DNA of 46,241 nucleotides, taken from the IMG/VR virus record IMGVR_UViG_3300022698_000322, positions 1 to 46,241 of that record. One strand, 5' to 3'. The translations under genes were made by a program, and so were the position numbers. Source of the DNA: a virus. The notes beneath the pieces were generated by a model. It made no database searches and was not told the origin of the DNA. It was given only the letters and a program-made list of their open reading frames with translations. Position 1 is the first letter of the stretch. Every line of letters starts with the position of its first letter. Below, piece by piece: positions 11,223 through 46,241 of this stretch.

Positions 11223-13192
11223 TAACTAATCACCGCCTCCGGCCAAACATAAATTTCCTTCCCTGACTCATATTTGCAAAGCTTAATCTGGAAAAATGCA
11301 AATCCTGTTTGTGATGGAGTGAATGTCACCGATAGAGATTGTGTCCAGTCCGTATCGTTACTGCGTGTTGCAATAGTTTCGGTCGAGGCTGTTGTTGTCA
11401 ACGCACCGTCAGCACCGGCCATGTATTTTCCCTCTAAAATTATTTCGGTATTTGCAAGTGTATCAGTAAAAGTTGATTGAATTTTAAACGTATATGTTTT
11501 TTCAACCGATGCTTCAGCGTAAACTCCGTATTCATAATCATTCAAAACTTTTATAAAATTACTCGCAGATAAATTCGATTGTAAATTACTCACCTCAATA
11601 CAATAACCATTCCCGGTATCGGGATCAACGGACGGGGAATCTCCTGTTCCATCACATGCGGTCTTAATCGTATTACCCATAACCTGATATGTTTTATGGG
11701 AGTTTAGCGTTTTATCATCATGATCAGACAAACAAAGTGATGCACCGTCAATATCATTTAAATCATACAGCGATAACCCTGCAAGCGGCATTTTACAATT
11801 TTTGCATTTTGTAACTGGACTATAACCCAAATCGTTTGTATTTGGTGCGGAAACAGCACCGTTATAACCTAATCTACCGCTCACCGTATTATTGTTGGAA
11901 GAATAAAATCCATAAGTATTCGAGTAGATATCTCCGCTCACCGTATTATTGTTGGAAGACTCAAATCCATAAGTATTCGAGTAGATATCTCCGCTCACCG
12001 TATTATTGTTGGAAGAAATGACGCCACGATAATTTGAGTAGATATCTCCGCTCACCGTATTATTGTTGAAAGAAATGAAGCCACGATAATTTGAGTAGAC
12101 ATCTCCGCTCACCGTATTATTGTCGGAAGAATTAAATCCATAATAACTTGAGTAGATATCTCCGCTCACCGTATTATTGTTGGAAGAATTAAATCCATAA
12201 TAACTTGAGTAGACATCTCCGCTCACCGTATTATTGTTGGAAGAAATGACGCCATAATAATTTGAGTAGACATCTCCGCTCACAGTATTATTGTCGGAAG
12301 AATTAAATCCATTCTCTCCATTTCTAACAATACAATTAGTAAACGTACCTCCGTTTATGGTTATTCTATACAAACCAGTAAACTGAACATGACTACAAAC
12401 ATTTGAATTAACACCAGTCGTATTATCAACAAAAAATGGACGATTAGTATTATATCTGGACGCAGATTGAATATCAGTTTCCGCTCCATATTTGTAAATT
12501 TTCACATTCCTTGTTACATTCGCGACCCTTGAAACCCATGTATCTCCAACATCCGCAGTAACTCCGGTCAATGTATCATTAAGCGTAATAGTAGTCCCGC
12601 TTATTCCAGCTATAGTCCTTACTACAACAGCATCAGTACGTGAAGACGAATCTCCTGTGCTTTCCCTTTTTATCGTTATTTCATCACCTACATGCCAATC
12701 ACCATCCATATCGTTGTTCGTAATAATCGTGTTGTCACCATCGGTATTTTCAGCATTATTGTCAAGGGTAGTTTCCCAAGACGTGCAATAAGCGGAATCA
12801 CCATAAATATTATAAGTCCCTCCATCGGTCACAGTAATACCTTGAGCATTATCTCCTGTAGTATTGAATATTATTTCAGCAGTATAGGCGGCACCAACCG
12901 GAGTTACCGCCGAACCAACGTTGAGCGTCCCTGCTGCCCCTATCGTAAGCGAAACGTTTCCAAAAGTAAGTTTTGTGTCATCATCGGTGACGAAGGTAAG
13001 CGTCCCGTTTATAGTAGACGCGCCAAGTTCATTTGTCTCTGAAACGTTGTACGTCACCTCATGGCCGGTATCGACGGTAAAGGTATCCCCGGCACTCCCC
13101 GGCCAATCCGTTCCTTTTACCCCAGGGGAATCATTCCCCCATGTCGCTCCATCATCCCAGTCGCCTGTTTGTACGCTTGTAAATGCTGCCAT
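11222..13192 (-). CDS. Right-handed beta-helix virion surface protein with NosD-like repeats
   Basis: A 656-residue protein. The N-terminal 220 residues are a beta-solenoid-like region of the 'GNDSPGVKGTDWPGSAGDTFTVD' type (read as two blocks) seen in phage and bacterial surface proteins. Residues about 290-440 hold at least eight 19-residue repeats of the form 'NNNTVSGDIYSNYYG.SS', a parallel beta-helix rung pattern. After 'CKNCK' a Cys pair precedes a C-terminal beta-sandwich-like domain with 'GDSPSVDPDTGNGYCIEVS'. It is probably a fibre or capsid appendage that binds or cleaves a polysaccharide. No catalytic residues can be assigned. It overlaps the Thr-rich protein gene by 1 bp. Confidence 0.7.
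   Translation of the reverse strand: MAAFTSVQTGDWDDGATWGNDSPGVKGTDWPGSAGDTFTVDTGHEVTYNVSETNELGASTINGTLTFVTDDDTKLTFGNVSLTIGAAGTLNVGSAVTPVGAAYTAEIIFNTTGDNAQGITVTDGGTYNIYGDSAYCTSWETTLDNNAENTDGDNTIITNNDMDGDWHVGDEITIKRESTGDSSSRTDAVVVRTIAGISGTTITLNDTLTGVTADVGDTWVSRVANVTRNVKIYKYGAETDIQSASRYNTNRPFFVDNTTGVNSNVCSHVQFTGLYRITINGGTFTNCIVRNGENGFNSSDNNTVSGDVYSNYYGVISSNNNTVSGDVYSSYYGFNSSNNNTVSGDIYSSYYGFNSSDNNTVSGDVYSNYRGFISFNNNTVSGDIYSNYRGVISSNNNTVSGDIYSNTYGFESSNNNTVSGDIYSNTYGFYSSNNNTVSGRLGYNGAVSAPNTNDLGYSPVTKCKNCKMPLAGLSLYDLNDIDGASLCLSDHDDKTLNSHKTYQVMGNTIKTACDGTGDSPSVDPDTGNGYCIEVSNLQSNLSASNFIKVLNDYEYGVYAEASVEKTYTFKIQSTFTDTLANTEIILEGKYMAGADGALTTTASTETIATRSNDTDWTQSLSVTFTPSQTGFAFFQIKLCKYESGKEIYVWPEAVIS
11877..12310 (-). 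repeat. 57-bp tandem repeats in the beta-helix gene
   Basis: Units of 57 bp (19 codons) carry the invariant block 'ccgctcaccgtattattgtt' and a variable block that differs by a few bases. Adjacent units are almost identical at DNA level. This implies recent duplication or gene conversion rather than ancient rung repetition. Confidence 0.9.
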
Positions 13193-22313: not shown

Positions 22314-22496
22314 CTACTTTTTTGCTGCACTCTCCAATATTTCATTAATCTTTTTCTCGTACTCATCGGGGAGTGGAGCGAAATCATTAAGCCACAGGTT
22401 CAAATATTGGTACGATACTCCGAGCATTTTTGCCAGACTCTTTCGCTTGATCCCGGCATTTCTAATTCTTTTTTTCAGCATTTTCATTTTACACAT
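22314..22496 (-). CDS. Small Cro/C1-type helix-turn-helix regulator
   Basis: A 60-residue protein: basic start ('KMKMLKKRIRNAGI'), then 'KRKSLAKMLGVSYQYLNLWL', which fits helices 2-3 of a Cro/C1 HTH. A short acidic helix 'DEYEKKINEILESAAKK' closes it. It sits between the 7-repeat array and a strong terminator and upstream of a perfect palindrome, so it may regulate the portal operon or the island. Confidence 0.75.
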   Translation of the reverse strand: MCKMKMLKKRIRNAGIKRKSLAKMLGVSYQYLNLWLNDFAPLPDEYEKKINEILESAAKK

Positions 22497-22521
22497 TATT
22501 TACCTCTTCCTGTTTCGCCCC

Positions 22522-22950
22522 CTCACAATTCCCGCCCGGGCACGAGTTGAAACGATATTGCCGCCGATGGATGAAGCTATTTCCGATCTCACAATCCCCG
22601 CCCGCGCACGAGTTGAAACAATTGAATTTTTTCCGCCTTGCAGTCCCTTGCTCTCACAATCCCCGCCCGCGCACGAGTTGAAACAATACCGTTTCGTCAC
22701 AATCACTATCTTCGATTAGTCTCACAATCCCCGCTCGCGCACGAGTTGAAACCCGCCTTATAAATGATTATTGACAACTAAGCAATCTCACAATCCCCGC
22801 CCGCGCACGAGTTGAAACTAGCGCAGAAGAAGAGACTCTTGTCGCGCAATTACTCACAATCCCCGCCCGCGCACGAGTTGAAACGTTGCGGTTGGTTCCT
22901 TTTGAGAATACTGTTTTCCTCACAATCCCCGCCCGCGCACGAGTTGAAAC
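22522..22950. CRISPR. CRISPR array 1: seven 32-nt repeats, six spacers
   Basis: Repeats at 22522, 22588, 22653, 22721, 22787, 22853 and 22919, each 32 nt, beginning CTCACAATCCCCGCCC and ending GCACGAGTTGAAAC on the plus strand. Spacers are 34, 33, 36, 34, 34 and 34 nt and all unique. Repeats 2, 3, 5, 6 and 7 are identical; repeat 1 has two changes and repeat 4 has one. The 3' GTTGAAAC and the 32/34 geometry resemble type I-C-like repeats if read on the plus strand, while the degenerate repeat at the left end would suggest transcription from the right. Orientation is therefore open. No adaptation genes are nearby. Confidence 0.95.
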
Positions 22951-23271
22951 TGTATCACCCGCAACAACAATAAAATCAATATGTTGAAGTACCTCTTGCG
23001 CGTACCGGTAACCTCTCAATGTTGGATTGTTTGCGATTGTAATTGTATTGTTTCGATCTCCGTTACGTTTCAATGGGTTACAACTTGCGCGAAAGGTACG
23101 GGGTTTCATGTGTGCTACAGGTTCGCGCTCTGTGCGGGAAAAAATAAATGTGCCACCATCGATACTCGTTTTAAGCGGGTGGGGATCGGCAAAACAGCCG
23201 ATTGACATAAAACATCTACGCCGTGCGCGTTGTGATCGCGCTTTTTCTATATCGATGGTGACACTAATCAT
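22768..23271 (-). CDS. Hypothetical protein whose 3' end reads into CRISPR array 1
   Basis: ATG at 23271, one base after the stop of the preceding gene. The frame stays open for 167 residues. The first about 108 residues are unique ('MISVTIDIEKARSQRARRRC' to 'LQHIDFIVVAGD'). The rest is translation of array repeats and spacers ('VSTRARAGIV' three times). Either a real gene has had its end replaced by the array, or the frame is open by chance. No family recognised. Confidence 0.35.
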   Translation of the reverse strand: MISVTIDIEKARSQRARRRCFMSIGCFADPHPLKTSIDGGTFIFSRTEREPVAHMKPRTFRASCNPLKRNGDRNNTITIANNPTLRGYRYAQEVLQHIDFIVVAGDTVSTRARAGIVRKTVFSKGTNRNVSTRARAGIVSNCATRVSSSALVSTRARAGIVRLLSCQ

Positions 23272-23672: not shown

Positions 23673-23822
23673 CCTTTCACCCCCAGCGCGGGGGATAGAC
23701 TTATCATCGATAGTTATGTCCAGAAATAGCAATCCCGTTTCCCCGCGCGCGGGGGATAGACGGCAGTCTGGCAGCAGATCGGTTCCGAAATGACCCCGTT
23801 TCCCCGCGCGCTGGGGATAGAC
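23673..23822 (+). CRISPR. CRISPR array 2: three I-E-like repeats, two spacers
   Basis: 28-nt repeats at 23673, 23734 and 23795, exactly 61 bp apart, with 33-nt spacers at 23701 and 23762. Core 'TTTCCCCGCGCGCGGGGG' plus 'ATAGAC' reproduces the hairpin and 3' handle of type I-E repeats, and the 61-bp period equals the usual I-E repeat+spacer unit. Repeat 1 is degenerate in its left half; repeat 3 has one change. The handle orientation predicts transcription on the plus strand. No Cascade or cas3 gene is in the window. Confidence 0.85.
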
Positions 23823-26858: not shown

Positions 26859-28607
26859 TTATAAAGCCATCCTGTTTACCATATCGTTATACTCCATATC
26901 TTCATAAACAGATTTTACCGGACCTTCATTTTCAATTGTAACGCCAATTGCCATTAATAAGGCGGCCATATCATCAATTTTGTCAGCAGATTTCTTCCTG
27001 TCAGGAGCCATATTTAAGTTTACATCCGTCCGAGCAACAATGTTTGATGCGCACCAGTTTAATACAGGATCACCCCCATGCCGCAGCTTTCCTGAAACAT
27101 ACATCTCTTCAAGTTTCTTCATCGCCGGATGATAGCTTTTTGGTCCCTGAATGAACTCAACAAGATTAAGACCTTCTTTTGTTAAATTGTTCGCAAGTTC
27201 TGTTGCATTCCAGCGATCATACGCTATTGTTTGTATTTTAAATTTATTGTTTAATTCTATGATATCACGTTCTACTACCTCATAATCAATAACATTTCCC
27301 CCTGTTTTTTTGATCAACCCCATATTAACCCATGCGGAATACGGTACGGTTCCACGTTCAGTTCTAATTTTTATAGCATCCTCCGGGCACCATCGCCAAC
27401 CGTAAGTATAATATATACCGTCAACATCCCAAAGCAGCCGAAACGCGGCAAGGTCCATCGTACTCGCAAGATCAAGTCCACCATAACAAGGATATTCTTT
27501 CACAAAATCAAAATCAATTTCAGAAGAGCACTCACGCCATTTTAAAAGATTAACCCATCCACCCGAAACCGAAGCCTGACGATTAAGTCGTTTTATTTTG
27601 AACTCAGCCAATTTAGATGGCATTTGCTTTGCCTCAATAGCTTCTTTACGTATTGCGGAAAGTAAATTAGGGTTTGTATCTATAAGCGGGTTTGCCTTTA
27701 CCCATTTTGATTCGTCGAAATCATCATCGGCTTTTATACCGGCAGTCTTATCTTCATCGTCCAGACACCAGAATAAAGCCAAAAAATGATCTGCTTCGTT
27801 TCCAAATACGCCCTGCAATAACTTTTTCGAAAAATCCCGCAGTTCACCCCATGGACCAGGTGATGTATACCCCTCTGTCGTAGTATATAACCATAGCGGA
27901 TTAGACCGCGCACCAGCAGCAGAAGTCAACACGTTTAGAAGATCTGGATCTTTATGTGCATGTATCTCATCAAGTGCCGTATGAGACGGATTCAACCCGT
28001 CTTGAGTACTTGCTTTCGCATGTATTGGCCTGAAATTACTACCAGTATCATATTTAGTTATCGCCTTGGCCCACACCTCTAACCCAAAAGCCTCCCGAAG
28101 TTCGGGAGTTTTTTCAATCATCTTTTTTGCGATGCCGAAAATTATAGCAGCTTGAGGAAACGTTGTGGCGGCACTAATTACCTGTGCGCCAGGTTCGCCC
28201 TCACAGCATATACAATATATTAAAATTGCCGCTGCGAGGGTGCTCTTTCCAGACTTCCGTGCCGTGGCATACAAAGCAGACGTAAAACGACGGCCACCAG
28301 TTTTTTTATCCCTAAACCCGAATAATTGAACAATAAAAAAGCATTGCGCCGGATGTAATACGATTGTCGGTGAATCCCATTTACCTTCTACGTGCGGGAG
28401 CTTTTCAATAAAATCACATGCGTTATTACCTTCGTTTTCTTCGTAATTTTTATTAAAATAAAATGTACAATCCTTTTTTTTTGTCCTTTTTAAATCATCT
28501 AGAAAACGCTGTGCTGCCAATCGTATCCATCGGCAATGTTTTTTATAATTTTTATCACTTATTGCATCACGCGCATACTTTTCTGCCGTTTCAACATAAT
28601 TTTTCAT
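26859..28607 (-). CDS. terL: Terminase large subunit
   Basis: A 582-residue packaging motor. ATPase domain: 'ATARKSGKSTLAAAIL' is Walker A (about residue 112) and 'PSHTALDEIHAHKD' carries Walker B Asp-Glu. Nuclease domain: 'YGGLDLASTMDLAAF' (RNase H-like first Asp) and 'KIDDMAALLMAIG' (last Asp pair). It is of the HK97/P2-like Terminase_1 type. It overlaps terS by 4 bp. Confidence 0.95.
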   Translation of the reverse strand: MKNYVETAEKYARDAISDKNYKKHCRWIRLAAQRFLDDLKRTKKKDCTFYFNKNYEENEGNNACDFIEKLPHVEGKWDSPTIVLHPAQCFFIVQLFGFRDKKTGGRRFTSALYATARKSGKSTLAAAILIYCICCEGEPGAQVISAATTFPQAAIIFGIAKKMIEKTPELREAFGLEVWAKAITKYDTGSNFRPIHAKASTQDGLNPSHTALDEIHAHKDPDLLNVLTSAAGARSNPLWLYTTTEGYTSPGPWGELRDFSKKLLQGVFGNEADHFLALFWCLDDEDKTAGIKADDDFDESKWVKANPLIDTNPNLLSAIRKEAIEAKQMPSKLAEFKIKRLNRQASVSGGWVNLLKWRECSSEIDFDFVKEYPCYGGLDLASTMDLAAFRLLWDVDGIYYTYGWRWCPEDAIKIRTERGTVPYSAWVNMGLIKKTGGNVIDYEVVERDIIELNNKFKIQTIAYDRWNATELANNLTKEGLNLVEFIQGPKSYHPAMKKLEEMYVSGKLRHGGDPVLNWCASNIVARTDVNLNMAPDRKKSADKIDDMAALLMAIGVTIENEGPVKSVYEDMEYNDMVNRMAL

Positions 28608-29083
28608 AAAACACCAAGCCGTCCCTTATTCTCTAAAAATTTGTTTTTCTTTTTCGCAGAACCATCAACCCTTATTTTTGTTCTGCTCGATGGTGTCATA
28701 CCGAATTCTGCTAAATACCTATGACAATCCCTCATAGATGTATTAGCAATATTTAGATAGGGATTGTTTATTGGATTTCCATTTTTTGTTTTAACAACCA
28801 TATTTGCAGGAGTAATCTTTTTTTCCGCATCAACCCATCTTCCGTATGCCTGACAATACAAAGCAAGCATAGATAAATCGATATCAGTCAACACACCAAT
28901 ATTATGTAACTTTACTGATATGCTATACCACTCCTCTTTAGCTGTGTCAGACAAAAACTCAGGAGGATCTGGCACATTTTCAACAACATCAGGTTCCGGC
29001 TCATCATTATTACGTCGACATGGGCGGTCGGTGCCGTTTATGACGTGTAATTTGGTTGGCTTTCGTGGTCTTCCTGCTGTCAT
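28604..29083 (-). CDS. terS: Terminase small subunit (P27 family)
   Basis: A 159-residue protein with the P27 pattern: 'GRPRKPTKLHVINGT' at the N-terminus, 'PEFLSDTAKEEWYSI', and 'LALYCQAYGRWVDAEKKI'. The C-terminal 'RDCHRYLAEFGMTPSSRTKI' is the segment that contacts the large subunit. It recognises the packaging site. It lies directly upstream of terL as usual. Confidence 0.92.
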   Translation of the reverse strand: MTAGRPRKPTKLHVINGTDRPCRRNNDEPEPDVVENVPDPPEFLSDTAKEEWYSISVKLHNIGVLTDIDLSMLALYCQAYGRWVDAEKKITPANMVVKTKNGNPINNPYLNIANTSMRDCHRYLAEFGMTPSSRTKIRVDGSAKKKNKFLENKGRLGVL

Positions 29084-29108: not shown

Positions 29109-29219
29109 TTAAATTAAGCACTTTTTAAAATTGGCATCCTTGATTATGCGAGGATTGTCCGGGTTTTTATGCAGTTTTTCAATGGGAACCATTTTAGCCT
29201 GTGGCAATGTTTCACTCAT
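29109..29219 (-). pseudogene. Truncated ParB-like N-terminus (remnant of a ParB/DNA methylase gene)
   Basis: A 36-codon ORF with a good Shine-Dalgarno (GGAG). It reads 'MVPIEKLHKNPDNPRIIKDA' then 'NFKKCLI' and stops. This is the first block of ParB-N-type proteins, which in many phages is fused to a DNA methyltransferase and lies next to terS. The rest is missing. The gene seems to have been broken by a deletion or frameshift, and a complete ParB-Dam gene of different sequence is found 0.8 kb upstream in cassette DNA. Confidence 0.7.
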
Positions 29220-29232
29220 CTTCTTTTTCTCC

Positions 29233-29432
29233 ATTTACCTTTTTCTTTTTAAGATCGGGGGCCAGAATTTCGGATATGGGAAAAACCTGATGCCCCTCCG
29301 GTTACACACCAGGCGGCCACAGAGGCTATAACGCCCCCCCCGCTTCGGGTTGTGGGTGTCTTCGATACTGTTCTGAGAGACGGGTTGTAAACCGTACCGC
29401 CCCCGGTGCTTGAGCCGCAACATGGCATACTG
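29233..29432. other. GC-rich stretch without a convincing gene
   Basis: About 200 bp, clearly richer in GC than the phage genes on its left. Several G/C runs (for example eight Gs on the minus strand near 29335) and complementary segments (CACC...GGCGG with CCGCC...GGTG on the minus strand) suggest secondary structure. Open frames cross it but have poor codon content and no family match. It may be the remains of a cassette. Confidence 0.4.
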
Positions 29433-29513
29433 CGTTCACCGCATGTATGCTGTTGCGGCCTATAATCCACTTCCTTAATTTCCTGCCGCAATTGCATACT
29501 GCGGCTGTTGTAC
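29433..29513 (-). repeat. attC-like recombination site (cassette end), minus orientation
   Basis: On the minus strand it begins GTACAAC (R''-like) and contains GCCGCAGTATGC paired with GCATACATGCGG, and ATTGCGGC paired with GCCGCAAC. The site is homologous to the plus-strand site at 45424-45510, with compensatory changes in the stems. The terminal core (R') is degenerate. It lies just past the nuclease gene at 29532. Confidence 0.7.
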
Positions 29514-29531
29514 GAAGTTCGGGCGGCTTCC

Positions 29532-29954
29532 TTAATTTTCTGCGCGCGCGTCTTCGTTTTTCTGTGCCCACTGCACCCAATTTCTTATACGCTGCTTCAC
29601 AATATCAAGCGTCGCTGGTTTCCACTTCTCGCCCTTCCCGGAAAACCACACCATAAGGCCATCCACCACCATAGTCTCAGCATTGCCAGAAACCACAAAA
29701 ACGGATAATAATTTTGTTTTCGTCAATCGTTCGTACATCAGAAGTTGCCCGCGCTTGAGTTCCTGCTGTCCTTCTTTCCATTCGAGCATTAAGCCCTTTC
29801 CGTTGATCTCTACTATCGCGTCAACGTCTCCAAAGTTGATTCGTCCGGGAAAGCAGTCTGAAAAAAATTCGATCTTTGGCCGCTTCAGCTTGTTGAAACA
29901 TCCGCGCTTATCGCAATCCCACCGAAGCGGGTTATATCCGTTCACCTGCTCCAT
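29532..29954 (-). CDS. PD-(D/E)XK-like nuclease
   Basis: A 140-residue protein. 'INFGDVDAIVEINGKGLMLE' followed by 'WKEGQQ' gives the core Asp...Glu-x-Lys of the PD-(D/E)XK fold (about residues 37-61). The preceding 'CDKRGCFNKLKRPKIEFF' contains a Cys pair. The gene overlaps the ParB-Dam methyltransferase by 13 bp on the same strand, so the two are coupled. The pairing recalls a compact restriction-modification or nuclease-protection unit, but phage DNA-processing nucleases of this kind also exist alone. Confidence 0.7.
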   Translation of the reverse strand: MEQVNGYNPLRWDCDKRGCFNKLKRPKIEFFSDCFPGRINFGDVDAIVEINGKGLMLEWKEGQQELKRGQLLMYERLTKTKLLSVFVVSGNAETMVVDGLMVWFSGKGEKWKPATLDIVKQRIRNWVQWAQKNEDARAEN

Positions 29955-30991
29955 GTAATGCCAAACTTTCCGAACACCCGACAGAAAACATCAGACTTCT
30001 TTCCAAGGTAAATGACGGCTTGCCCTTGAAGTGGCGCGCCGGGATTTCCGCTTGGGTCAAGAAAACGAATCCGGCTTTTAGGAAAGCAAACCGCACTGCT
30101 GCATTCTGCCATGCTCTGAAACCATGCTGTTTCAGTTGCGTTGTTCACGAGTACACACGCTTCATCAATCTCCTTTGCCTTAAACTTCTTGACAATCGCG
30201 GCGGAGAATTGGCCTATCAGCGGCTGCGCATAAGGCGGATTCATGAATGTGCGCCCATGCCATCTATTTGAAAGCCCGTCGTCGTCGATTGTGAAAAATG
30301 TTTCGGCCTTCACCGTGCGGTTCGCCTTCTCGCTCGATGCCGGATCACAGTCAATGCCGCCCATGACTTCGCGGACGGCTTTGACGTACTCTGGCGGCGT
30401 GTACCATTCATTTTCTCCTGTGGCAAGCGCAACATGCGCCTTCTTTTCTGTTGCTGTTGCCTTGGATTCAAAGTCTTTCACAACTTCCCGCTGCTTCTCC
30501 GGCGTAGCTTTTGTAAGACGCGCCGCCACGCTCACCGGCATTTTCCCTGAGTCCACGGCACGCGATAACTCCGGCGTTCCACGCTCCTGCACCACGCGGG
30601 CGCGCTGAACACTGCTACGAGCAACCGACATTCGTTTTGCTGCACCGGCCTGAGAAACTGCTTCAATTGAAGCAGTTGTTTTCTCTGGCCTGCCTTCGTT
30701 CATCGTCGCAATTCTCGCGGCGATCATTGCCCGCTGCGATTCGTTCAAATGGCGTCGCTTAAGGTTCAGCGAAATCACGAAGCCAAGCGGGTCTTTGCCT
30801 TTGTATTCGCGTGTCTTGATTTCAACTCCAGCATCCTTGCACGCTCGCGCCCGGTTGCGCCCGTCAAGAATTTTGTCCTCGTACAACCAGACTGACTCAT
30901 GCAGGCCATTCTCTTTGATGTCGGCAACGAGCGCATCGTATTCCGCGCCTTCAATCATCGGAAAAATGTCTGCCATCGGATGGTATTTCAT
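29942..30991 (-). CDS. ParB-like domain fused to phage Dam-type N6-adenine methyltransferase
   Basis: A 349-residue protein. Residues 1-100 are ParB-N-like ('EYDALVADIKENGLHESVWL', 'ILDGRNRARACKDAG', 'LNLKRRHLNESQRAMIAARI'). A KorB-like helical linker follows to about 190. The C-terminal half has the phage Dam pattern 'GENEWYTPPEYVKAVREVMG', 'IDCDPASSEKAN' and the catalytic 'TFMNPPYAQPLIGQF' (NPPY). It probably methylates adenines in phage DNA. GC content is above that of the late genes, fitting acquisition by transfer. It lies between inverted repeats and attC-like sites. Confidence 0.88.
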   Translation of the reverse strand: MKYHPMADIFPMIEGAEYDALVADIKENGLHESVWLYEDKILDGRNRARACKDAGVEIKTREYKGKDPLGFVISLNLKRRHLNESQRAMIAARIATMNEGRPEKTTASIEAVSQAGAAKRMSVARSSVQRARVVQERGTPELSRAVDSGKMPVSVAARLTKATPEKQREVVKDFESKATATEKKAHVALATGENEWYTPPEYVKAVREVMGGIDCDPASSEKANRTVKAETFFTIDDDGLSNRWHGRTFMNPPYAQPLIGQFSAAIVKKFKAKEIDEACVLVNNATETAWFQSMAECSSAVCFPKSRIRFLDPSGNPGAPLQGQAVIYLGKKSDVFCRVFGKFGITWSR

Positions 30992-31046
30992 GGTTTCCTT
31001 TCTTGGTTTTCGCGCGCGCCTATAATTTCAAAGCCGCCCGAATTTT

Positions 31047-31064
31047 GTACAACATTTGTTAGGC
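31047..31064 (-). repeat. Collapsed attC-like site
   Basis: On the minus strand GCCTAAC-aaat-GTTGTAC: the R''-type and R'-type ends of an attC site with the middle deleted. It marks the junction between the 56-residue gene, whose TAA stop lies in GCCTAAC, and the methylase-nuclease unit. Confidence 0.6.
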
Positions 31065-31229
31065 GACAGTTTTTTGTTGCTCCGCTTTATAAGCAAGCAT
31101 ACAACCACTGTGCCAGTCTGAAGGCGGATTACCTTCCTTTACATAGCATTCACAACATTGGTATACGTTACCCGTTTTAGCACTCCAGCTTTCGTGCATA
31201 GCCGCCTTTCCACACTTACACTTTTTCAT
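31059..31229 (-). CDS. Zinc-ribbon micro-protein (56 aa)
   Basis: ATG at 31229 with a GGAGG Shine-Dalgarno 6 bp upstream, stop at 31059. The N-terminus 'MKKCKCGKAAMHESWSAKTG' and 'NVYQCCECYVKEG' provide two Cys pairs for Zn. The end 'HSGCMLAYKAEQQKTVA' is helical. It overlaps the collapsed attC site at its stop codon, as cassette genes often do. Function unknown. Confidence 0.65.
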   Translation of the reverse strand: MKKCKCGKAAMHESWSAKTGNVYQCCECYVKEGNPPSDWHSGCMLAYKAEQQKTVA

Positions 31230-31248
31230 GCTTGCCTCCAGTATATGG

Positions 31249-31341
31249 TCAACAAAAATACCTATTTTTACTAATATCCCTTAAAAGCTCATATTGCCGT
31301 CTATCAGACTTAATAAGAATTTCGTTGTTTAGAGATGCCAT
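31249..31341 (-). CDS. Micro-protein (30 aa)
   Basis: ATG at 31341 with GGAG 9 bp upstream, stop at 31249, 20 bp before the next start. The product 'MASLNNEILIKSDRRQYELL' plus ten residues is helical and charged. The only evidence is the ribosome-binding site, spacing and operon position. Confidence 0.4.
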   Translation of the reverse strand: MASLNNEILIKSDRRQYELLRDISKNRYFC

Positions 31342-31371
31342 AATAAAACTCCAAGGAAAAATTTATTTCTT

Positions 31372-31635
31372 CTAACATTTCGGCGCATACGAAGTGCCCT
31401 CGATCCAGTCGCAATTGTAGCACCCATACTTATCGTGCGCCATCCAATAGCATATTCTAGAACTACCGCACTTAGGACATTTTGTAATGCGCCTGTTGTG
31501 TGTTGGTTCGCCAACTTCCGCAGCTTCTGTGGCCGCGACCCAACACTCCCACATAAGCGACCGTACCTTCGTTGATACCGTATCTGCAGCGAAGCGGTCC
31601 ATAAACTCCTGAAATTTTCGGTTATTAGCGGCCAC
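31372..31635 (-). CDS. Zinc-ribbon protein with helical N-terminus
   Basis: An 87-residue protein. The start is GTG at 31635 with AAAGGAG upstream. The N-terminal helix is 'NNRKFQEFMDRFAADTVSTK'. The C-terminal 'ITKCPKCGSSRICYWMAHDK' and 'YGCYNCDWIEG' form a Cys4 zinc ribbon. It is the first gene downstream of the HNH endonuclease gene and opens the cassette-like stretch. Probably nucleic-acid binding. Confidence 0.65.
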   Translation of the reverse strand: MAANNRKFQEFMDRFAADTVSTKVRSLMWECWVAATEAAEVGEPTHNRRITKCPKCGSSRICYWMAHDKYGCYNCDWIEGTSYAPKC

Positions 31636-31705
31636 CTACAATCTCCTTTCAAGGGCGGACTTGCACAAAACGGTTCGCGAATATGTGAATATCAATTTTC
31701 TTCCA

Positions 31706-32062
31706 TCATAATTTTCCAGTCTCTATCGGATACCCATCAACACCAATATGCTTAACAACTTTACCGCTTTTCTCGTATATTTGTTTGTTTCTGTTATGAC
31801 AATGTTCGCACAACGACTGGAACGGCCCCTTAAAAAACAATTTAATATTCCCACGGTGGGGTACTATATGATCACATACCGTAGCTACAGTAATTTTCCC
31901 CCCTTTTTTACAATCACGGCACATTGGTTCACGCGCCAACTGAGCCTTTCTAATTCTTCGCCAGGTAGGAGTATGGTATAAATAATTATATTGTCCAGAT
32001 TGATTACTTTTTAATTGCCGTACGGCGTGCGGTTTATGTGTTTCTGGTTTTTGCGGAGACAT
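31706..32062 (-). CDS. HNH endonuclease (packaging-associated)
   Basis: A 118-residue protein with the HNH motif: 'LAREPMCRDCKKGGKITVAT' (first Cys pair), 'VCDHIVPHRGNIKLFF' (the His-containing core) and 'FQSLCEHCHNRNKQIYEKSG' (second Cys pair and the Asn). In HK97-like phages an HNH protein assists the terminase in cos cleavage and lies next to terS. Here 2.6 kb of cassette DNA separates them. It is the first gene of the minus-strand operon. Confidence 0.9.
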   Translation of the reverse strand: MSPQKPETHKPHAVRQLKSNQSGQYNYLYHTPTWRRIRKAQLAREPMCRDCKKGGKITVATVCDHIVPHRGNIKLFFKGPFQSLCEHCHNRNKQIYEKSGKVVKHIGVDGYPIETGKL

Positions 32063-32899: not shown

Positions 32900-33415
32900 A
32901 TGATCATTGACAAAAATTACACTGGAGCAACACCGTATTTAAACGGGATAAAAATTGACGGCGATTTGGTCACTTCAGAATCGCTAACTATCACATGTGA
33001 TCTATACGTAACCGGGTACCTCAGCAGCGGCGGGAGCATCATCAGCGGCGGGGACCTCATCAGCAGCGGCGGGGACATCATCAGCGGCGGGGACCTCATC
33101 ATCAGCGGCGGGAGCATCAGAAGTGGCGGGGACCTCATCAGCGGCGGGGACATCAGCAGTGGCGGGAACCTCCGTTATGTTAGCATATCTGTTTTTGGGG
33201 TACCCACAGAGGTATTTATACAAATCAAACTATTTTACAGTATTACAATTACAGACACGATAATCAAAATCGGCTGTGAAAAACACACAATTGACAAGTG
33301 GAAAAACTTTACAGACAGAGAGATTTTAGAAATGGATGGACATAGTGGTCTCCAGTTCTGGAAAGAATATAAAAATATGATTATGGGTATTGTAGATAGT
33401 AACAAAAAACAATAA
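32900..33415 (+). CDS. Gly-rich repeat protein
   Basis: A 171-residue protein. Residues 43-92 are about ten short imperfect repeats of Ser-Gly-Gly-(Asp/Ser)-(Ile/Leu)-Ile, encoded by DNA repeats 'ggcggggacctcatcagc'. The alternation suggests a short beta-solenoid, as in polymer-forming (bactofilin-like) or left-handed helix proteins. The C-terminal 70 residues look globular and include 'CEKHTIDKWKNFTDREILEM'. It lies in the early operon, so it may not be structural. Function unknown. Confidence 0.6.
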   Translation: MIIDKNYTGATPYLNGIKIDGDLVTSESLTITCDLYVTGYLSSGGSIISGGDLISSGGDIISGGDLIISGGSIRSGGDLISGGDISSGGNLRYVSISVFGVPTEVFIQIKLFYSITITDTIIKIGCEKHTIDKWKNFTDREILEMDGHSGLQFWKEYKNMIMGIVDSNKKQ

Positions 33416-42342: not shown

Positions 42343-42558
42343 GTTATGCAAAATAGAAAGGGCTTCTTGTGATTGTAGGCGCACTAATCAACCGGCTGGT
42401 TAGAACCTGTCCGGGGCTTCCCGTGTTTAAACGTAATGCCGCCATATCAGGAAGGTGGGAGGTGCGCTGTAAATTATGGAGGCCCTTTCTAAATCGCATA
42501 ACAGCCGCAGCCCAACATGTCAAAGCCCACGTCGGGCGGGTGCGGTAGCCCGTTGTAG
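42343..42558 (+). mobile_element. Integron-like cassette 1 (RNA element only) with attC site 42496-42558
   Basis: Starts at a core-type GTTATGC (42343). Ends in an attC-like site with R'' GCATAAC, paired CCGCA/TGCGG and GCCC/GGGC, and core GTTGTAG (42552). It contains RNA element A and no gene. Confidence 0.7.
42354..42491 (+). ncRNA. Structured element A (unknown RNA family, cassette 1)
   Basis: TAGAAAGGGC (42354) pairs with GCCCTTTCTA (42482). A 14-nt 5' linker then leads to inner stem GCGCAC (42379)/GTGCGC (42462). The 3' linker reads TGTAAATTATGGAG. About 77 nt lie inside the inner stem, with a CTAA...GGTTAG hairpin. Elements B and C share the layout with different stem sequences. No credible ORF in this cassette. 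Confidence 0.7.
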
Positions 42559-42590
42559 TAAATCGTCTTCTTAAATTTATTGGAGTTCTC

Positions 42591-42869
42591 ATGGAACAAC
42601 TTATCGATAATCAACCATCATTTGATGAACTTGCAGCAAGCTGTTGCAATATGGCAAACATCATCGCGTCCATTCGAAAGTTATGCGATAGAACTCAGCC
42701 GACATCCTACAACACAGGCAGCCTAAAATTTCCAAGCCTTGAAGAGGTTCGCGAGGCTTACGAGCGGCATGTTTCAGGAAGAACATTTTCTAACGAAAAA
42801 CCATTAGATTCAATAGCGTTCATACGCGAATATATTATAACGGCTTGTAAACTTCAGGCAGGTGCCTGA
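42591..42869 (+). CDS. Cassette 2 protein, unknown function
   Basis: A 92-residue protein following TTGGAG. 'DRTQPTSYNTGSLKFPSLEE' resembles 'CTQPTSTNTASFQLPLTMES' in the cassette 5 protein, so the two are distant paralogues. Both cassettes also share the leader GTCTTCTTAAATTTATT. Helical ends, no known motif. Confidence 0.6.
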   Translation: MEQLIDNQPSFDELAASCCNMANIIASIRKLCDRTQPTSYNTGSLKFPSLEEVREAYERHVSGRTFSNEKPLDSIAFIREYIITACKLQAGA

Positions 42870-42880
42870 GAACGTTGTAC
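42835..42880 (+). repeat. attC-like site 2 (short)
   Basis: R'' TTATAAC, internal hairpin CAGGCaggtGCCTG and core GTTGTAC (42874). Overlaps the end of the cassette 2 gene. Confidence 0.6.
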
Positions 42881-42916
42881 AAAACTTCAGTCGTGCTTTT
42901 TATAATTGGAGGTAGC

Positions 42917-43144
42917 TTGGATACATTTAAACAAATTGTAGATTTAATGTGGGTTATTTCGGTTTCATGCACCGTAGTTATATACCATTATCGCTACTTT
43001 AAATCTAAGGAAGGCACTCCGTCCGCATCGCACAACAGCGCTATGGTGCCATGCGAAAACGAGAAATGCGATAATGCAGCGGTATATCATTTATGTAGGG
43101 ATTGTATGCGCGATGATGCCGCATTCTACGCACAGCACCAGTAG
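42917..43144 (+). CDS. Cassette 3 membrane protein with zinc-knuckle tail
   Basis: Start chosen at TTG 42917, 3 bp past GGAGGTA; an earlier in-frame ATG (42875) lies inside the attC core and is less likely. One transmembrane segment ('QIVDLMWVISVSCTVVIYHY'), then 'KEGTPSASHNSAMVPCENEK', then Cys residues near the end ('YHLCRDCMRDD'). The leader and the 'PSASHN' block are shared with the cassette 11 protein, while the C-termini differ. Confidence 0.55.
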   Translation: MDTFKQIVDLMWVISVSCTVVIYHYRYFKSKEGTPSASHNSAMVPCENEKCDNAAVYHLCRDCMRDDAAFYAQHQ

Positions 43145-43152
43145 CGCGGAAC

Positions 43153-43159
43153 GTTGTAC
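43153..43159 (+). repeat. Cassette core site GTTGTAC
   Basis: A core-type AACGTTGTACGCAATGC junction between cassettes 3 and 4. A clear R'' arm is not visible, so the attC site here is short or decayed. Confidence 0.4.
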
Positions 43160-43209
43160 GCAATGCCTCGATTCTTTTTGAATTAAAGGCGGCGCTAAGA
43201 GGAGAAAAA

Positions 43210-43719
43210 ATGAAAGCTGACAAATTCCAAGTTGAAGATGAAAACGCATGTAATCTTTGTGCGTTACATGAAAATTTTGATGAACAGATCGATTTTGTTC
43301 CGTGTCCGTCATGCGATAAGCCAATTGACATTCCTGGTGAACTTACAGTTGTCGGAGAACACAACGGATGCGATACAAAGAACATTACTAAAGTTCCGGT
43401 GGAAGAGTGTCCACACTGCGGAAAAACGGTCGCATTTCTCCCTACTGTAATACATTACAATGCGAACCATGATGTTTATTACACCGGGGAACCTTGCTAC
43501 CTTGGCCCAGATGAAGATTCCGATATAGAGGGAAGAGTTCGAGAGAAGATGAAGGAATCTGTAGAGCAGTTCGTCCGCAGGGTTAAGGCTGGTGAAGATA
43601 ATTTAAATGATTTTTATCTCACCATCTGGCTTGAACGGTGCGTATCTAAAGCACTTGCTGAGTTCCTTTACGAAAAAGGATATAAAAGGAAGATCGCGCC
43701 GCAGGAGAATAAGGAATGA
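43210..43719 (+). CDS. Cassette 4 protein with multiple zinc knuckles
   Basis: A 169-residue protein after GAGGAG. Three Cys pairs ('ACNLCALHENF', 'PCPSCDKPIDIPGE', 'ECPHCGKTVAF') suggest two zinc-binding units in the first half. The second half is helical and charged ('VREKMKESVEQFVRRVKAGE'). No catalytic motif. Confidence 0.7.
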   Translation: MKADKFQVEDENACNLCALHENFDEQIDFVPCPSCDKPIDIPGELTVVGEHNGCDTKNITKVPVEECPHCGKTVAFLPTVIHYNANHDVYYTGEPCYLGPDEDSDIEGRVREKMKESVEQFVRRVKAGEDNLNDFYLTIWLERCVSKALAEFLYEKGYKRKIAPQENKE

Positions 43720-43732
43720 ATCGAGGCACAGC

Positions 43733-43808
43733 GTACAACATTGGCTATACGGTTCGCTGTCGCTCTCCCAAATACTGTCGTACTTCGTATAGCCAAAGCA
43801 CGTTGGAG
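43733..43808 (+). repeat. attC-like site 4
   Basis: R'' GTACAAC, long stem TTGGCTATACG paired with CGTATAGCCAA, core GTTGGAG (43802). Confidence 0.75.
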
Positions 43809-43846
43809 GAAATGGTCTTCTTAAATTTATTCATAGGCGGCGCAAT

Positions 43847-44107
43847 ATGTTAAGTATGGCAAGATGTAAAACTCACGGTATTTGCAAACACGAAACTCGG
43901 TCGGTGTGCTCACTGTGCGCCGCAGAAAATAGTTGTACTCAGCCCACATCCACCAACACAGCAAGTTTTCAATTGCCGCTCACTATGGAATCATGTATCG
44001 AACATTTACGCGCAATGTGGGGAGATATCCATATTACAGCAGAGGTTCGTGGCGCGGTCGAAGAAACTCACGATTTTATAGAGCGGCAACTGCAAACGTT
44101 GCTCTAA
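43847..44107 (+). CDS. Cassette 5 Cys-rich protein
   Basis: An 86-residue protein. The N-terminal 'CKTHGICKHETRSVCSLCAA' is a Cys-rich zinc-binding stretch, followed by the 'TQPTS.NT.S' block shared with cassette 2 and a helical end. ATG at 43847 or 43856. The leader TCTTCTTAAATTTATT matches cassette 2. Confidence 0.6.
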   Translation: MLSMARCKTHGICKHETRSVCSLCAAENSCTQPTSTNTASFQLPLTMESCIEHLRAMWGDIHITAEVRGAVEETHDFIERQLQTLL

Positions 44108-44115
44108 CGTTGGTG
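44080..44115 (+). repeat. attC-like site 5 (very short)
   Basis: AGAGCggcAAC pairs with GTTGCTCT, followed by core GTTGGTG (44109). It overlaps the gene's 3' end. Confidence 0.55.
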
Positions 44116-44163
44116 TCCATGTTTGCCTTAAAAATATTAAAATATTATCGAAAGGGGCGGCGA

Positions 44164-44427
44164 ATGAAATACCGATTTTTAAAGGATGGTGAACCGGTTG
44201 TTGTTGCTACCGACGAACAGCGATTTGGCATAAACGGTAACGGTCCGTGGAAGCCTTTGTCTGTCAATATTTTTTGGCGTAATGGGGAGATATATAAAAG
44301 TGGCGTGCATTGTAAAATTCGCCGCCCCATTACGCAGGGGAAGCGGCAAACACAGGCCACCAACAAACGCAGCACGGCTAGCAAGGCTCGGCCCAAATTG
44401 GCGAAGCGCCAACTTCGTGCTGCGTAG
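44164..44427 (+). CDS. Cassette 6 small protein
   Basis: Start chosen at ATG 44164 behind GGGGCGG, giving 87 residues. The first 55 residues are a small beta domain ('YRFLKDGEPVVVATDEQRFG', 'NIFWRNGEIYKSGVHCK'). The last 30 residues are basic and are encoded by the attC site itself, a common feature of cassette genes. Function unknown. Confidence 0.6.
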   Translation: MKYRFLKDGEPVVVATDEQRFGINGNGPWKPLSVNIFWRNGEIYKSGVHCKIRRPITQGKRQTQATNKRSTASKARPKLAKRQLRAA

Positions 44428-44437
44428 TACGTTAGGC
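44358..44437 (+). repeat. attC-like site 6
   Basis: R''-like CACCAAC, stem CGCAGCACG/CGTGCTGCG, apical hairpin TTGGCGAAGCGCCAA, core GTTAGGC (44431). Fits the classical attC layout. Confidence 0.85.
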
Positions 44438-44474
44438 GAAATAAAATTTTCTTTTTGAATATGGAGGCTCGCGT

Positions 44475-44708
44475 ATGCCGGTAGTAGCAATGGTTGAATG
44501 CTCGGCGGGAAACGACAGCGTAGGAACTATGTGGATTCAAACGAGGGTATTTAATACATCAGAACCTATTGCTAATGTCATGCGGTGGGTTGAAACGCTG
44601 TCGTCTCATTGCATAGGTAAAGTCATTCTTCGCACGCCAGATAACGCGAGCGAAATTAAAGTAGAAAATTTTACATCGCCTAACAAACAAAGTGTGGCGC
44701 AAAGCTAA
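44475..44708 (+). CDS. Cassette 7 small protein
   Basis: A 77-residue protein preceded by TGGAGG. 'TMWIQTRVFNTSEPIANVMR' and 'GKVILRTPDNASEIKVENFT' suggest a compact alpha/beta domain. The last residues overlap the attC site. No family recognised. Confidence 0.6.
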   Translation: MPVVAMVECSAGNDSVGTMWIQTRVFNTSEPIANVMRWVETLSSHCIGKVILRTPDNASEIKVENFTSPNKQSVAQS

Positions 44709-44749
44709 ATTTGCGAAGCGCAAACTTCACACTTTGTCAAACGTTATAC
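44678..44749 (+). repeat. attC-like site 7 (canonical)
   Basis: R'' GCCTAAC (matches RYYYAAC), stem CAAAGTGTG/CACACTTTG, hairpin TTTGCGAAGCGCAAA, core GTTATAC (44743). The clearest attC in the window. Confidence 0.9.
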
Positions 44750-44776
44750 GCAATTGCACCGGAGAGCAGATATTAT

Positions 44777-45484
44777 ATGCGCGCCCTAAATACAATTCAT
44801 AGAGTCGATTCCTTTGCGGAGCTTCATGCGCTCGCTTCTCAGTGCGTAGATTTTGCCTTCGCCGACCCGCCGTATGGTGTCAACAAGGCAGAATGGGACA
44901 GCGCCTACCCTCGTTTCGATTTCGAGGCTGAGTTGCTCCGCGTTACGCGAAAGGGTGTTGCTGTTACGCCGGGCCAAGAACAAATCGCCACTTGTATCCA
45001 GCGTATGGGTGCGGCTTATCAAGGTTTGCACGTCGGGCGCAATCTCAACGGTATGACTTTCAACAAGCTTGGTTTCGAAAACACCATTATTGCCGTTATC
45101 GGCGGCGGTGCCGTGCGGGGGCAGTCATTTTTCGAGTTTTCTGTTTCTGGCGAGAAGCCGCCGCACCCTTCTCCTAAGCCGATTGAGTACATGGTCAAGT
45201 TGCTTCTGCGATTTACCGAACCGGGCGATATTGTTCTTGATCCTTTCTCCGGTAGTGGCACAACCGCCATTGCCTGTCACAAACTTGGTCGGCGTTTTCT
45301 TTGTTTCGAGCATGATATTCAGTATCACGCGCTGTCCCTCGAACGACTGGAACAGGAGCGAGCTCAACAGTGCCTTTTCGGGGCAGAGGGCGCGCTGGAA
45401 TCTAAGGAATCCGGTGCAACAGCGTATAACAGCGGCAGTATGCAATTATCGCTGGACATTATGGAAGTGGGCAATAGGCGATAA
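44777..45484 (+). CDS. Cassette 8 DNA methyltransferase (N4/N6, beta class)
   Basis: Start chosen at ATG 44777, outside the attC core, giving 235 residues. 'VDFAFADPPYGVNKAEWDS' is the catalytic DPPY motif near the N-terminus. 'DIVLDPFSGSGTTAIACHKL' near residue 155 is the SAM-binding motif. This order (IV before I) defines beta-class enzymes of phage orphan or type II methylases. The last residues overlap the attC site. No cognate restriction gene is seen, so it is probably a protective or regulatory orphan enzyme. Confidence 0.92.
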   Translation: MRALNTIHRVDSFAELHALASQCVDFAFADPPYGVNKAEWDSAYPRFDFEAELLRVTRKGVAVTPGQEQIATCIQRMGAAYQGLHVGRNLNGMTFNKLGFENTIIAVIGGGAVRGQSFFEFSVSGEKPPHPSPKPIEYMVKLLLRFTEPGDIVLDPFSGSGTTAIACHKLGRRFLCFEHDIQYHALSLERLEQERAQQCLFGAEGALESKESGATAYNSGSMQLSLDIMEVGNRR

Positions 45485-45510
45485 CTGCACACATGCCGCA
45501 AACGTTGGAG
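45424..45510 (+). repeat. attC-like site 8, homologous to the site at 29433-29513
   Basis: R'' GTATAAC, stems GCGGCA/TGCCGC and ATTATCGC/GCGATAAC, core GTTGGAG (45504). Sequence and fold match the minus-strand site at 29.4 kb, with compensating stem substitutions. Confidence 0.85.
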
Positions 45511-45517
45511 TGCAATA

Positions 45518-45645
45518 AATGGGTGCTTTTAATTTAGATGCGCGAGCGGTGCAAAGTCCGTTTAATTTGCTTCCGGTAACGGGGCTAAGACAGGTGCCCC
45601 GCCGAAGGGCCGGTGATCTCGCGCTATATTTTGGAGGCACCCATT
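45518..45645 (+). ncRNA. Structured element B (same family as A, cassette 9)
   Basis: Outer stem AATGGGTGC (45518)/GCACCCATT (45637). 5' linker TTTTAATTTAGAT, inner stem GCGCGAG (45540)/CTCGCGC (45618), 3' linker TATATTTTGGAG. An internal hairpin CGGGGC...GCCCCG lies within 71 nt. A 42-codon frame beginning in the outer stem is probably incidental. Confidence 0.7.
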
Positions 45646-45651
45646 GACTGC

Positions 45652-45719
45652 ATCCAACAACCGTATGGTGTTCGCCTTCGGCACATGCAGGAGCACGTCA
45701 CCATACTTTTCCGTTGGTG
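45652..45719 (+). repeat. attC-like site 9
   Basis: R''-like ATCCAAC, stem CGTATGGTG paired with CACCATAC, core GTTGGTG (45713). Confidence 0.75.
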
Positions 45720-45724
45720 TAAAT

Positions 45725-45858
45725 GTTTCGCTCTTTGAATATTTATGGCGCTGTAAAACATGGAGGATGGCCCTACTGCCTGTCGGTAGCTCCGGCATTA
45801 ATCCTCTCCGGGAAAATGGCTTTGGGAACAGCGCCTTTACATTATGGTGGAGCTAAAC
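45725..45858 (+). ncRNA. Structured element C (same family as A, cassette 10)
   Basis: Outer stem GTTTcGCTC (45725)/GAGCtAAAC (45850) with one mismatch. 5' linker TTTGAATATTTAT, inner stem GGCGCTGT (45747)/ACAGCGCC (45828), 3' linker TTTACATTATGGTG. The 73-nt interior includes CTACTG/CGGTAG. The cassette has no ORF with a ribosome-binding site. Confidence 0.7.
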
Positions 45859-45864
45859 ACGTTC

Positions 45865-45943
45865 CACCAACAAGCCAAGGGTGGCTCGAAGACTCGCGCA
45901 AATGCCGGAGTACCGGCACTTCACCCTTGGCAGTCCGTTGTGC
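45865..45943 (+). repeat. attC-like site 10
   Basis: R''-like CACCAAC, stem GCCAAGGGTG/CACCCTTGGC, hairpin GCCGG..CCGGC, core GTTGTGC (45937). Confidence 0.85.
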
Positions 45944-45982
45944 AAAACTACAGTCGTTAATTTTTTAATTGGAGGTTTAATT

Positions 45983-46237
45983 GTGAGTGAGTTCTTTTTC
46001 TTTTTCGTCCTTTTGTTGCCTGTTGCACTTTCATGTTTTGTACTTGGAATAAGGGTGGCAATTAAACAAAATAATAAGGAAGTCACTCCTTCCGCATCGC
46101 ACAACAAAGCAAGCCCGTCTGCTTCGCAAATTGCCGACGACATCGAGTCAGAGGTTAACAAAGTTAAGAACAGCACATACCCGCTAAACCTGTGCCATGT
46201 TGAAAAGTGGTGTTGGCAACTTCGGGCATTGCAATAA
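45983..46237 (+). CDS. Cassette 11 membrane protein
   Basis: GTG start at 45983 behind GGAGG, 84 residues. A transmembrane helix ('FFFFFVLLLPVALSCFVLGI') is followed by 'KEVTPSASHNKASPSASQIA' and a helical Cys-containing end. The leader and the 'PSASHN' block match cassette 3, but the C-terminus is unrelated. The stop codon runs into the AATAACGTT of the next core at the window edge. Confidence 0.65.
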   Translation: MSEFFFFFVLLLPVALSCFVLGIRVAIKQNNKEVTPSASHNKASPSASQIADDIESEVNKVKNSTYPLNLCHVEKWCWQLRALQ

Positions 46238-46241
46238 CGTT

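What the first reader, a model, noticed from the sequence alone, without database searches (positions are those of the whole stretch)
29109..31680. A second cassette locus in reverse orientation splits the packaging genes
HNH endonuclease and terS are normally neighbours; here 2.6 kb lies between them. It contains an attC-like site at 29433-29513 and a collapsed one at 31047-31064, zinc-ribbon micro-genes, and a GC-richer methylase-nuclease pair. Orientation follows the local operon, so cassettes entered twice, each time aligned with transcription.
Basis: partly seen in the sequence, partly recalled or inferred. Interest (0 to 1): 0.7.

Follow-up and report, generated by a model that had tools for sequence, protein, structure and literature searches.

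The report
Second integron-cassette block in phage packaging operon
This phage carries mobile-gene 'cassettes' of the kind bacteria store in integrons at two places, and the second, decaying set sits backwards between two DNA-packaging genes and holds a DNA-methylase/nuclease pair that other phages carry as ordinary genes.

Summary
Confirmed in substance. Between HNH and terS lie 2.6 kb of minus-strand DNA containing a cassette block. The methylase-nuclease unit (about 29433-31053) ends in an attC that is 74% identical over 115 nt to an attC of the phage's own + strand array. An attC model trained without it finds it on the minus strand (E=8e-4). Its start and end are complementary over 22 of 24 nt, as in the array's cassettes; this is unique in the window and absent from shuffles.

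Corrections. The attC at 29433 has lost its R' core (GTT to GCA) and the middle attC its stem, so the block is decaying. No integrase gene was found. The HNH-terS gap is a variable cargo slot: short in 15 of 19 relatives, filled with other genes in some. The methylase-nuclease pair is a common phage module, without attC in 24 of 24 other loci; only here is it inside a cassette. 'Entered twice' is plausible but not shown; alignment with transcription rests on two loci.

Phage cassette clusters are already known. The second, opposite block with phage-derived cargo is a new variant.

The parts
31706..32062 (-). HNH endonuclease gene, left neighbour of the insert
   Evidence: phrog_2323 HNH E=1.9e-28
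31376..31671 (-). cassette X: starts G|TTTTGTGC 35 nt after the HNH stop, ends at R'' ACACAAC (31495); carries an 87-aa zinc-ribbon-like ORF (31372-31635) that overlaps its attC
   Evidence: own start/end complementarity 14/26 against cross maximum 12; only weak zinc-finger matches
31370..31501 (-). attC of cassette X: R'' ACACAAC, L'' GGCGCAT, L' ATGCGCC, R' GTTAGAA
   Evidence: scan hit; right half E=0.076 with model R1; fold, z -1.3 only
31054..31376 (-). cassette Y with a 56-aa Cys-rich ORF (31059-31229)
   Evidence: translation; start/end complementarity 13/26, not decisive
31047..31064 (-). collapsed attC of Y: R'' GCCTAAC + AAAT + R' GTTGTAC, stem lost
   Evidence: sequence
29433..31053 (-). 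cassette Z (methylase-nuclease)
   Evidence: 22/24 complementary arms 29506-29529/31031-31054, the only such pair in the window and none in 6 shuffles; own 21/26 against cross maximum 13; excised-circle junction folds at z -8.35
29942..30991 (-). ParB-like N-terminus + Dam-type N6-adenine DNA methyltransferase, NPPY motif intact
   Evidence: PF05869 E=2.5e-13; phrog_111 5.5e-34, phrog_21315 2e-28; A6
29532..29954 (-). small nuclease-like protein (GDVD...EWK, PD-(D/E)XK-like), overlaps the methylase end by 13 nt
   Evidence: conserved D43, D45, E58, K60 in 12 of 12 homologues; alpha/beta model; fold match weak
29433..29513 (-). attC of cassette Z: R'' GTACAAC, L'' CCGCAGTATGC, L' GCATACATGCGG, then AACG; identity to attC h becomes weak after the G, at the expected crossover point; R' GTT is GCA
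29236..29432 (-). unassigned GC-rich segment (0.55), perhaps a broken cassette
   Evidence: GC; no Rfam match
29109..29234 (-). 41-aa ORF MSETLPQAKMVPIEKLHKNPDNPRII..., possible remnant of a ParB-like/methyltransferase gene just upstream of terS
   Evidence: phrog_498 E=0.015, phrog_620 E=0.041, N-terminal positions; relatives L022 and L033 have a ParB-like gene at this place
28604..29083 (-). terminase small subunit
   Evidence: PF05119 7.2e-27
26859..28607 (-). terminase large subunit
   Evidence: phrog_9 7.6e-150
42343..46241 (+). main cassette array, 11 attC sites (a-k), running off the contig end
   Evidence: scan score >=26: 12 in the window against 0.6 in shuffles; folds; complementarity

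Best explanation
The minus-strand insert is a second, decaying cluster of integron gene cassettes without an integrase (a CALIN). It is made of about three cassettes (X, Y, Z) lying in the HNH-terS cargo slot of a phage whose main cassette array is on the other strand. Shown: the attC-type right end of Z, the own-start/own-end complementarity, orientation with the operon, absence of a tyrosine recombinase in this (incomplete) contig, and the phage origin of the methylase-nuclease pair. Inferred: cassettes were placed here by an integron integrase supplied by a host, or came in as a block from another array, and lie downstream of HNH so that late transcription through terS reads them without a promoter of their own. 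The methylase would modify phage DNA (anti-restriction or self-marking) and the nuclease would process DNA in concert. The lost R' core of Z and the lost stem of Y mean the block can hardly be re-excised and is becoming fixed phage cargo, perhaps replacing an older ParB-like/methyltransferase gene of which a 41-aa stub may remain before terS.
For: 115-nt match of the Z end to array attC h at E about 1e-14. Model R1, trained without it, finds it on the minus strand at E=8.4e-4 and the X attC half at E=0.076, with the first chance hit in the window at E=4.7 and no false hit at E<=1 in 306 kb of controls. 22/24 terminal complementarity, unique in the window and absent from shuffles. Own-against-cross test over 14 cassettes, mean 16.9 against 10.5, Z 21 against 13. 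The closest relative G001 has an attC array at the collinear place. No PF00589 recombinase in either contig. HNH-terS gap short in 15 of 19 relatives. The pair is a phage module without attC in 24 of 24 loci.
Against: Z's R' core is not GTT, Y's attC has no stem, and X's attC is weak (z -1.3), so none of the three would pass as a fully intact attC. The closest relative cannot serve as an empty site, because its HNH and terS lie at opposite contig ends. The segment 29236-29432 is unexplained. The ParB stub rests on E=0.015 plus position.
Confidence: 0.83

Rival explanations
1. Block transfer: the X-Y-Z stretch was already a run of cassettes in another array (another phage or a bacterial integron) and came in by ordinary homologous or illegitimate phage recombination. 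Integron integrase played no part at this site. (This rival concerns the mode of entry only; it keeps the cassette identity.)
For: Phage modules move by such recombination. The attCs here are degenerate. A 197-nt GC-rich piece of unknown origin trails the block. The slot holds unrelated genes in relatives. Qi et al. 2023 (PMC9892861) propose the same for phage CALINs.
Against: Identity of the last attC to its relative weakens right after the G of the crossover (AACG|CA), as expected for integrase-mediated insertion at a non-canonical site. A mutated R' explains that equally well.
Confidence: 0.42
2. Ordinary phage cargo: the methylase-nuclease pair is simply a phage module at its normal place, and the attC-like ends are coincidence or transcription terminators.
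For: The pair is native and unflanked by attC in 24 other viral loci. In L095 it lies 0.9 kb upstream of an HNH gene followed by terS and terL.
Against: In none of the relatives examined does the pair lie between HNH and terS. attC h homology of 115 nt and terminal complementarity of 22/24 are far beyond chance. GC of the pair differs from its surroundings in the window but not in the other loci.
Confidence: 0.08
3. The minus-strand block is an inverted translocated piece of the phage's own + strand array, so only one acquisition took place.
For: Same attC type in both places; Z's attC is nearest to attC h of the array.
Against: No cassette body is shared between the two loci: outside the attC no DNA match of the insert to the array was found. 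The array runs off the contig end, so missing cassettes cannot be excluded.
Confidence: 0.15

Closest known systems
CALINs of virulent phages (Tetrasphaera phage TJE1, Polaribacter phage P12002L and others; Qi et al. 2023, PMC9892861)
   Same: attC-bounded cassettes without integrase in a phage genome; DNA methyltransferases are frequent cargo; attC sites of divergent direction are reported for P12002L. My scanner recovers the TJE1 attCs at 244-293, 1016-1075 and 1462-1519.
   Different: Here there are two separate loci on opposite strands, one of them between HNH and terS, with 11 attCs in the main array. Cassette ends are complementary over about 22 nt, against about 8 nt in two TJE1 cassettes and 11-12 nt in three class 1 cassettes.
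Fused gene cassettes with partly or fully lost attC (PMC4670013, abstract)
   Same: The Y-Z junction, with R'' and R' kept and the stem gone, matches this description.
   Different: In a phage, with no integron platform.
Cassette insertion at non-classical attG sites (Loot et al. 2024, doi 10.1038/s41564-023-01548-y, known to me only through citation in PMC12901181)
   Same: Cassettes outside an integron, last attC lacking a canonical R'.
   Different: The target sequence cannot be reconstructed here; the attG consensus was not available to test.
Phage ParB-like/Dam methyltransferase plus small PD-(D/E)XK-like nuclease pair (viral loci L096-L119)
   Same: Same gene order and a short overlap, with homologous methylase in 17 of 24 loci.
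   Different: Elsewhere the pair shows no attC-like site at its end and has the GC of its contig; here it lies inside a cassette.

Membership tests
integron gene cassette | attC with R'' (RYYYAAC) and R' (GTTRRRY) flanking an L''/L' stem at the 3' end of the ORF | tested here: inconclusive
   Z: R'' and stem present, R' is GCA. X: complete but weak. Y: R'' and R' present, stem lost.
integron gene cassette | cassette start complementary to its own R'' end | tested here: met
   Z 21/26 against cross maximum 13; X 14 against 12; Y 13, not decisive
integron gene cassette | homology of the end to recognised attC sites of the same element | tested here: met
   E about 1e-14 to attC h; R1 E=8.4e-4
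CALIN | at least two attC sites close together without an integron integrase | tested here: inconclusive
   No PF00589 in the window, but the contig is incomplete. + array: 11 attCs. Minus locus: two recognisable attCs and one collapsed.
CALIN | attCs recombined by an IntI | not testable with these tools
   needs an assay
restriction-modification pair | methyltransferase with catalytic motif plus nuclease with catalytic residues, genetically linked | tested here: met
   NPPY motif; D43/D45/E58/K60 invariant in 12 sequences; linkage. PADLOC gives only 'orphan methyltransferase'.
restriction-modification pair | same recognition sequence for cutting and methylation | not testable with these tools
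   needs an assay

The most novel reading that the evidence does not exclude
A native phage gene pair was turned into an integron cassette. Comparison of the cassette copy with uncassetted copies in other phages would then record how cassettes form, with the roughly 22-nt terminal complementarity of this lineage's cassettes as a trace of the process, and the phage swaps anti-restriction cargo by borrowing a host's integron integrase at more than one genomic site.
Probability: 0.25. Interest if true: 0.75.

Novelty: new variant of a known kind. Interest (0 to 1): 0.5.

Why it matters
De novo cassette formation is described as largely unknown (PMC5371416). Here the same methylase-nuclease pair exists as plain phage genes and inside a cassette, so its boundaries can be compared directly. 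It also shows that phage cassettes need not stay in one array: they occur in a late packaging operon, where promoterless cassettes would be read.

Tried and rejected
Methylase against viral contigs and genome contigs: no close relative. CRISPR repeat of the phage in genome contigs to name a host: no match, so the host and its integron remain unknown. attC patterns in viral contigs: only the closest relative G001, or nothing. Rfam: nothing useful. A structure-based covariance model failed because RNAalifold found no consensus pair on the MAFFT alignment, so R1 is a sequence-only model. The IntI-insertion-at-attG reading was considered and kept only as compatible, since the target cannot be reconstructed. 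attC-like hits in L015/L016 look like internal sequence repeats, not attCs. The PH101 CALIN was not recovered by my scanner (one quarter of that genome not fetched), so the scanner is not exhaustive. PDB fold search for the nuclease gave only weak matches, Hjc-type resolvases among them.

Full report
Observation. The window is a 46,241-bp IMG/VR phage contig. On the minus strand HNH (31706-32062), terS (28604-29083) and terL (26859-28607) follow each other, with 2623 bp between HNH and terS. In 15 of 19 viral loci with both genes the gap is 100-215 bp, and it is 131 bp in Pseudomonas phage TC7. The remaining four have 550-3150 bp. Two of these, L022 and L033, hold a ParB-like gene there; the L022 product is 465 aa and looks like a ParB-methyltransferase by eye. 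None of the four shows an attC-like site.

Is it cassette DNA? Four independent tests agree for the methylase-nuclease unit Z. First, its right end (29433-29547) matches 45390-45504 of the opposite strand at 74% over 115 nt, E about 1e-14, and that sequence is attC h of the + array. Second, a sequence model from 14 attCs of the + array and of the closest relative, with the insert left out, finds 29434-29516 (-) at E=8.4e-4 and 31366-31407 (-) at E=0.076. All better-scoring hits are array attCs, and the first chance hit is at E=4.7. In 306 kb of other phage DNA the model has no hit at E<=1 outside the relative's own attCs. Third, Z's first 24 nt and the 24 nt at its R'' end are complementary at 22 positions. 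No other such pair within 2.5 kb exists in the window, and none in six shuffles. Fourth, in each array cassette the start matches its own end better than other cassettes' ends on average (mean 16.9 against 10.5 of 26 over 14 cassettes); Z scores 21 against a cross maximum of 13. Joined as an excised circle, Z's ends fold into one long hairpin (z -8.35).

Anatomy. Y carries a 56-aa Cys-rich ORF and ends in GCCTAAC-AAAT-GTTGTAC, an attC reduced to its R'' and R' boxes. Z carries the methylase (29942-30991) and the nuclease (29532-29954) and ends in the attC at 29433-29513. In that attC, identity to attC h becomes weak after AACG, where R' should begin (GTT is GCA). Then come 197 nt of GC-rich DNA without assignment and a 41-aa ORF whose only matches, all weak, are the N-termini of ParB-like/methyltransferase families, and then terS. 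GC is 0.50 for X, 0.38 for Y, 0.51 for Z, 0.55 for the GC-rich segment and 0.34 for the last piece, against 0.40 for terL-terS.

The cargo. The methylase has a ParB-like N-terminus and a Dam domain with NPPY. The nuclease has an invariant D-x-D...E-x-K core and a modelled alpha/beta fold; its PDB matches are weak. Twenty-four viral loci encode the nuclease. In 17 a methylase homologous to the window's is present; wherever both ORFs could be bounded it is directly upstream, with an overlap like the window's in several. None has an attC-like site near the nuclease end, and the pair has the GC of its contig. So the pair is a phage module. In L095 it stands 0.9 kb upstream of an HNH gene that is followed by terS and terL.

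The closest relative. G001 (IMGVR_UViG_3300031277_000003, terL 75%) is collinear with the window and has 13 attC-like sites at the place corresponding to the + array. Its HNH and terS lie at opposite contig ends. If the contig is circularly permuted, its HNH-terS interval is about 2.5 kb of unrelated genes with no attC. I therefore call the interval a variable cargo slot, with that reservation.

Mechanism. Neither contig encodes a tyrosine recombinase (with controls), so any integron integrase would have to come from a host, which I could not identify. Whether the block came by integrase at a non-classical site or as a block by phage recombination is open. The junction at the crossover G is compatible with the first and does not exclude the second. 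With R' lost on Z and the stem lost on Y, the block is probably no longer mobile. Expression by read-through from the packaging operon is inferred from orientation and from GA-rich sequences before the ORF starts.

Known or new. Clusters of attC sites without integrase in virulent phages, often with methyltransferases, were described by Qi et al. 2023 (PMC9892861), including divergent attCs in P12002L. New here are a second, opposite-strand block in the packaging operon and a phage-native gene pair inside a cassette. The lineage's cassette ends are also unusual. Complementarity runs about 22 nt with a short mismatch around positions 10-11, against 11-12 nt in three class 1 cassettes and about 8 nt in two TJE1 cassettes. 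The control set is small.

Noticed in passing
window 22495-22960 and 23673-23822: Two CRISPR-like arrays in the phage: seven or more repeats CTCACAATCCCCGCCCGCGCACGAGTTGAAAC with 66-nt spacing, and three repeats like CCCCGCGCGCGGGGATAGAC with 61-nt spacing. The first repeat has no exact match in genome contigs.
   Followed up: partly
window 42343-46241; L083 15449-20000; L084 1-482: Cassettes of this phage lineage have about 22-nt (not 7-12-nt) start/end complementarity, interrupted by a short mismatch around positions 10-11 in most; possible clue to cassette formation.
   Followed up: partly
window 42591-42869, 42875-43144, 43847-44107, 31372-31635: Small ORFs, some Cys-rich, that run through their own long attC sites, so attC loop and coding sequence overlap.
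   Followed up: no
window 46241: The contig ends at ...AACGTT, the R' of an attC, so assembly may have broken at a repeated attC and the + array is probably longer than seen.
   Followed up: no
window 44711-45484: The + array also carries a methyltransferase cassette (N6_N4_Mtase, E=1.4e-21); its attC is the nearest relative of the attC of cassette Z.
   Followed up: partly
window 10752-11155, 11820-12368, 32995-33200: Tandem repeats of 27, 57 and 18-21 nt, at least partly inside coding sequence.
   Followed up: no
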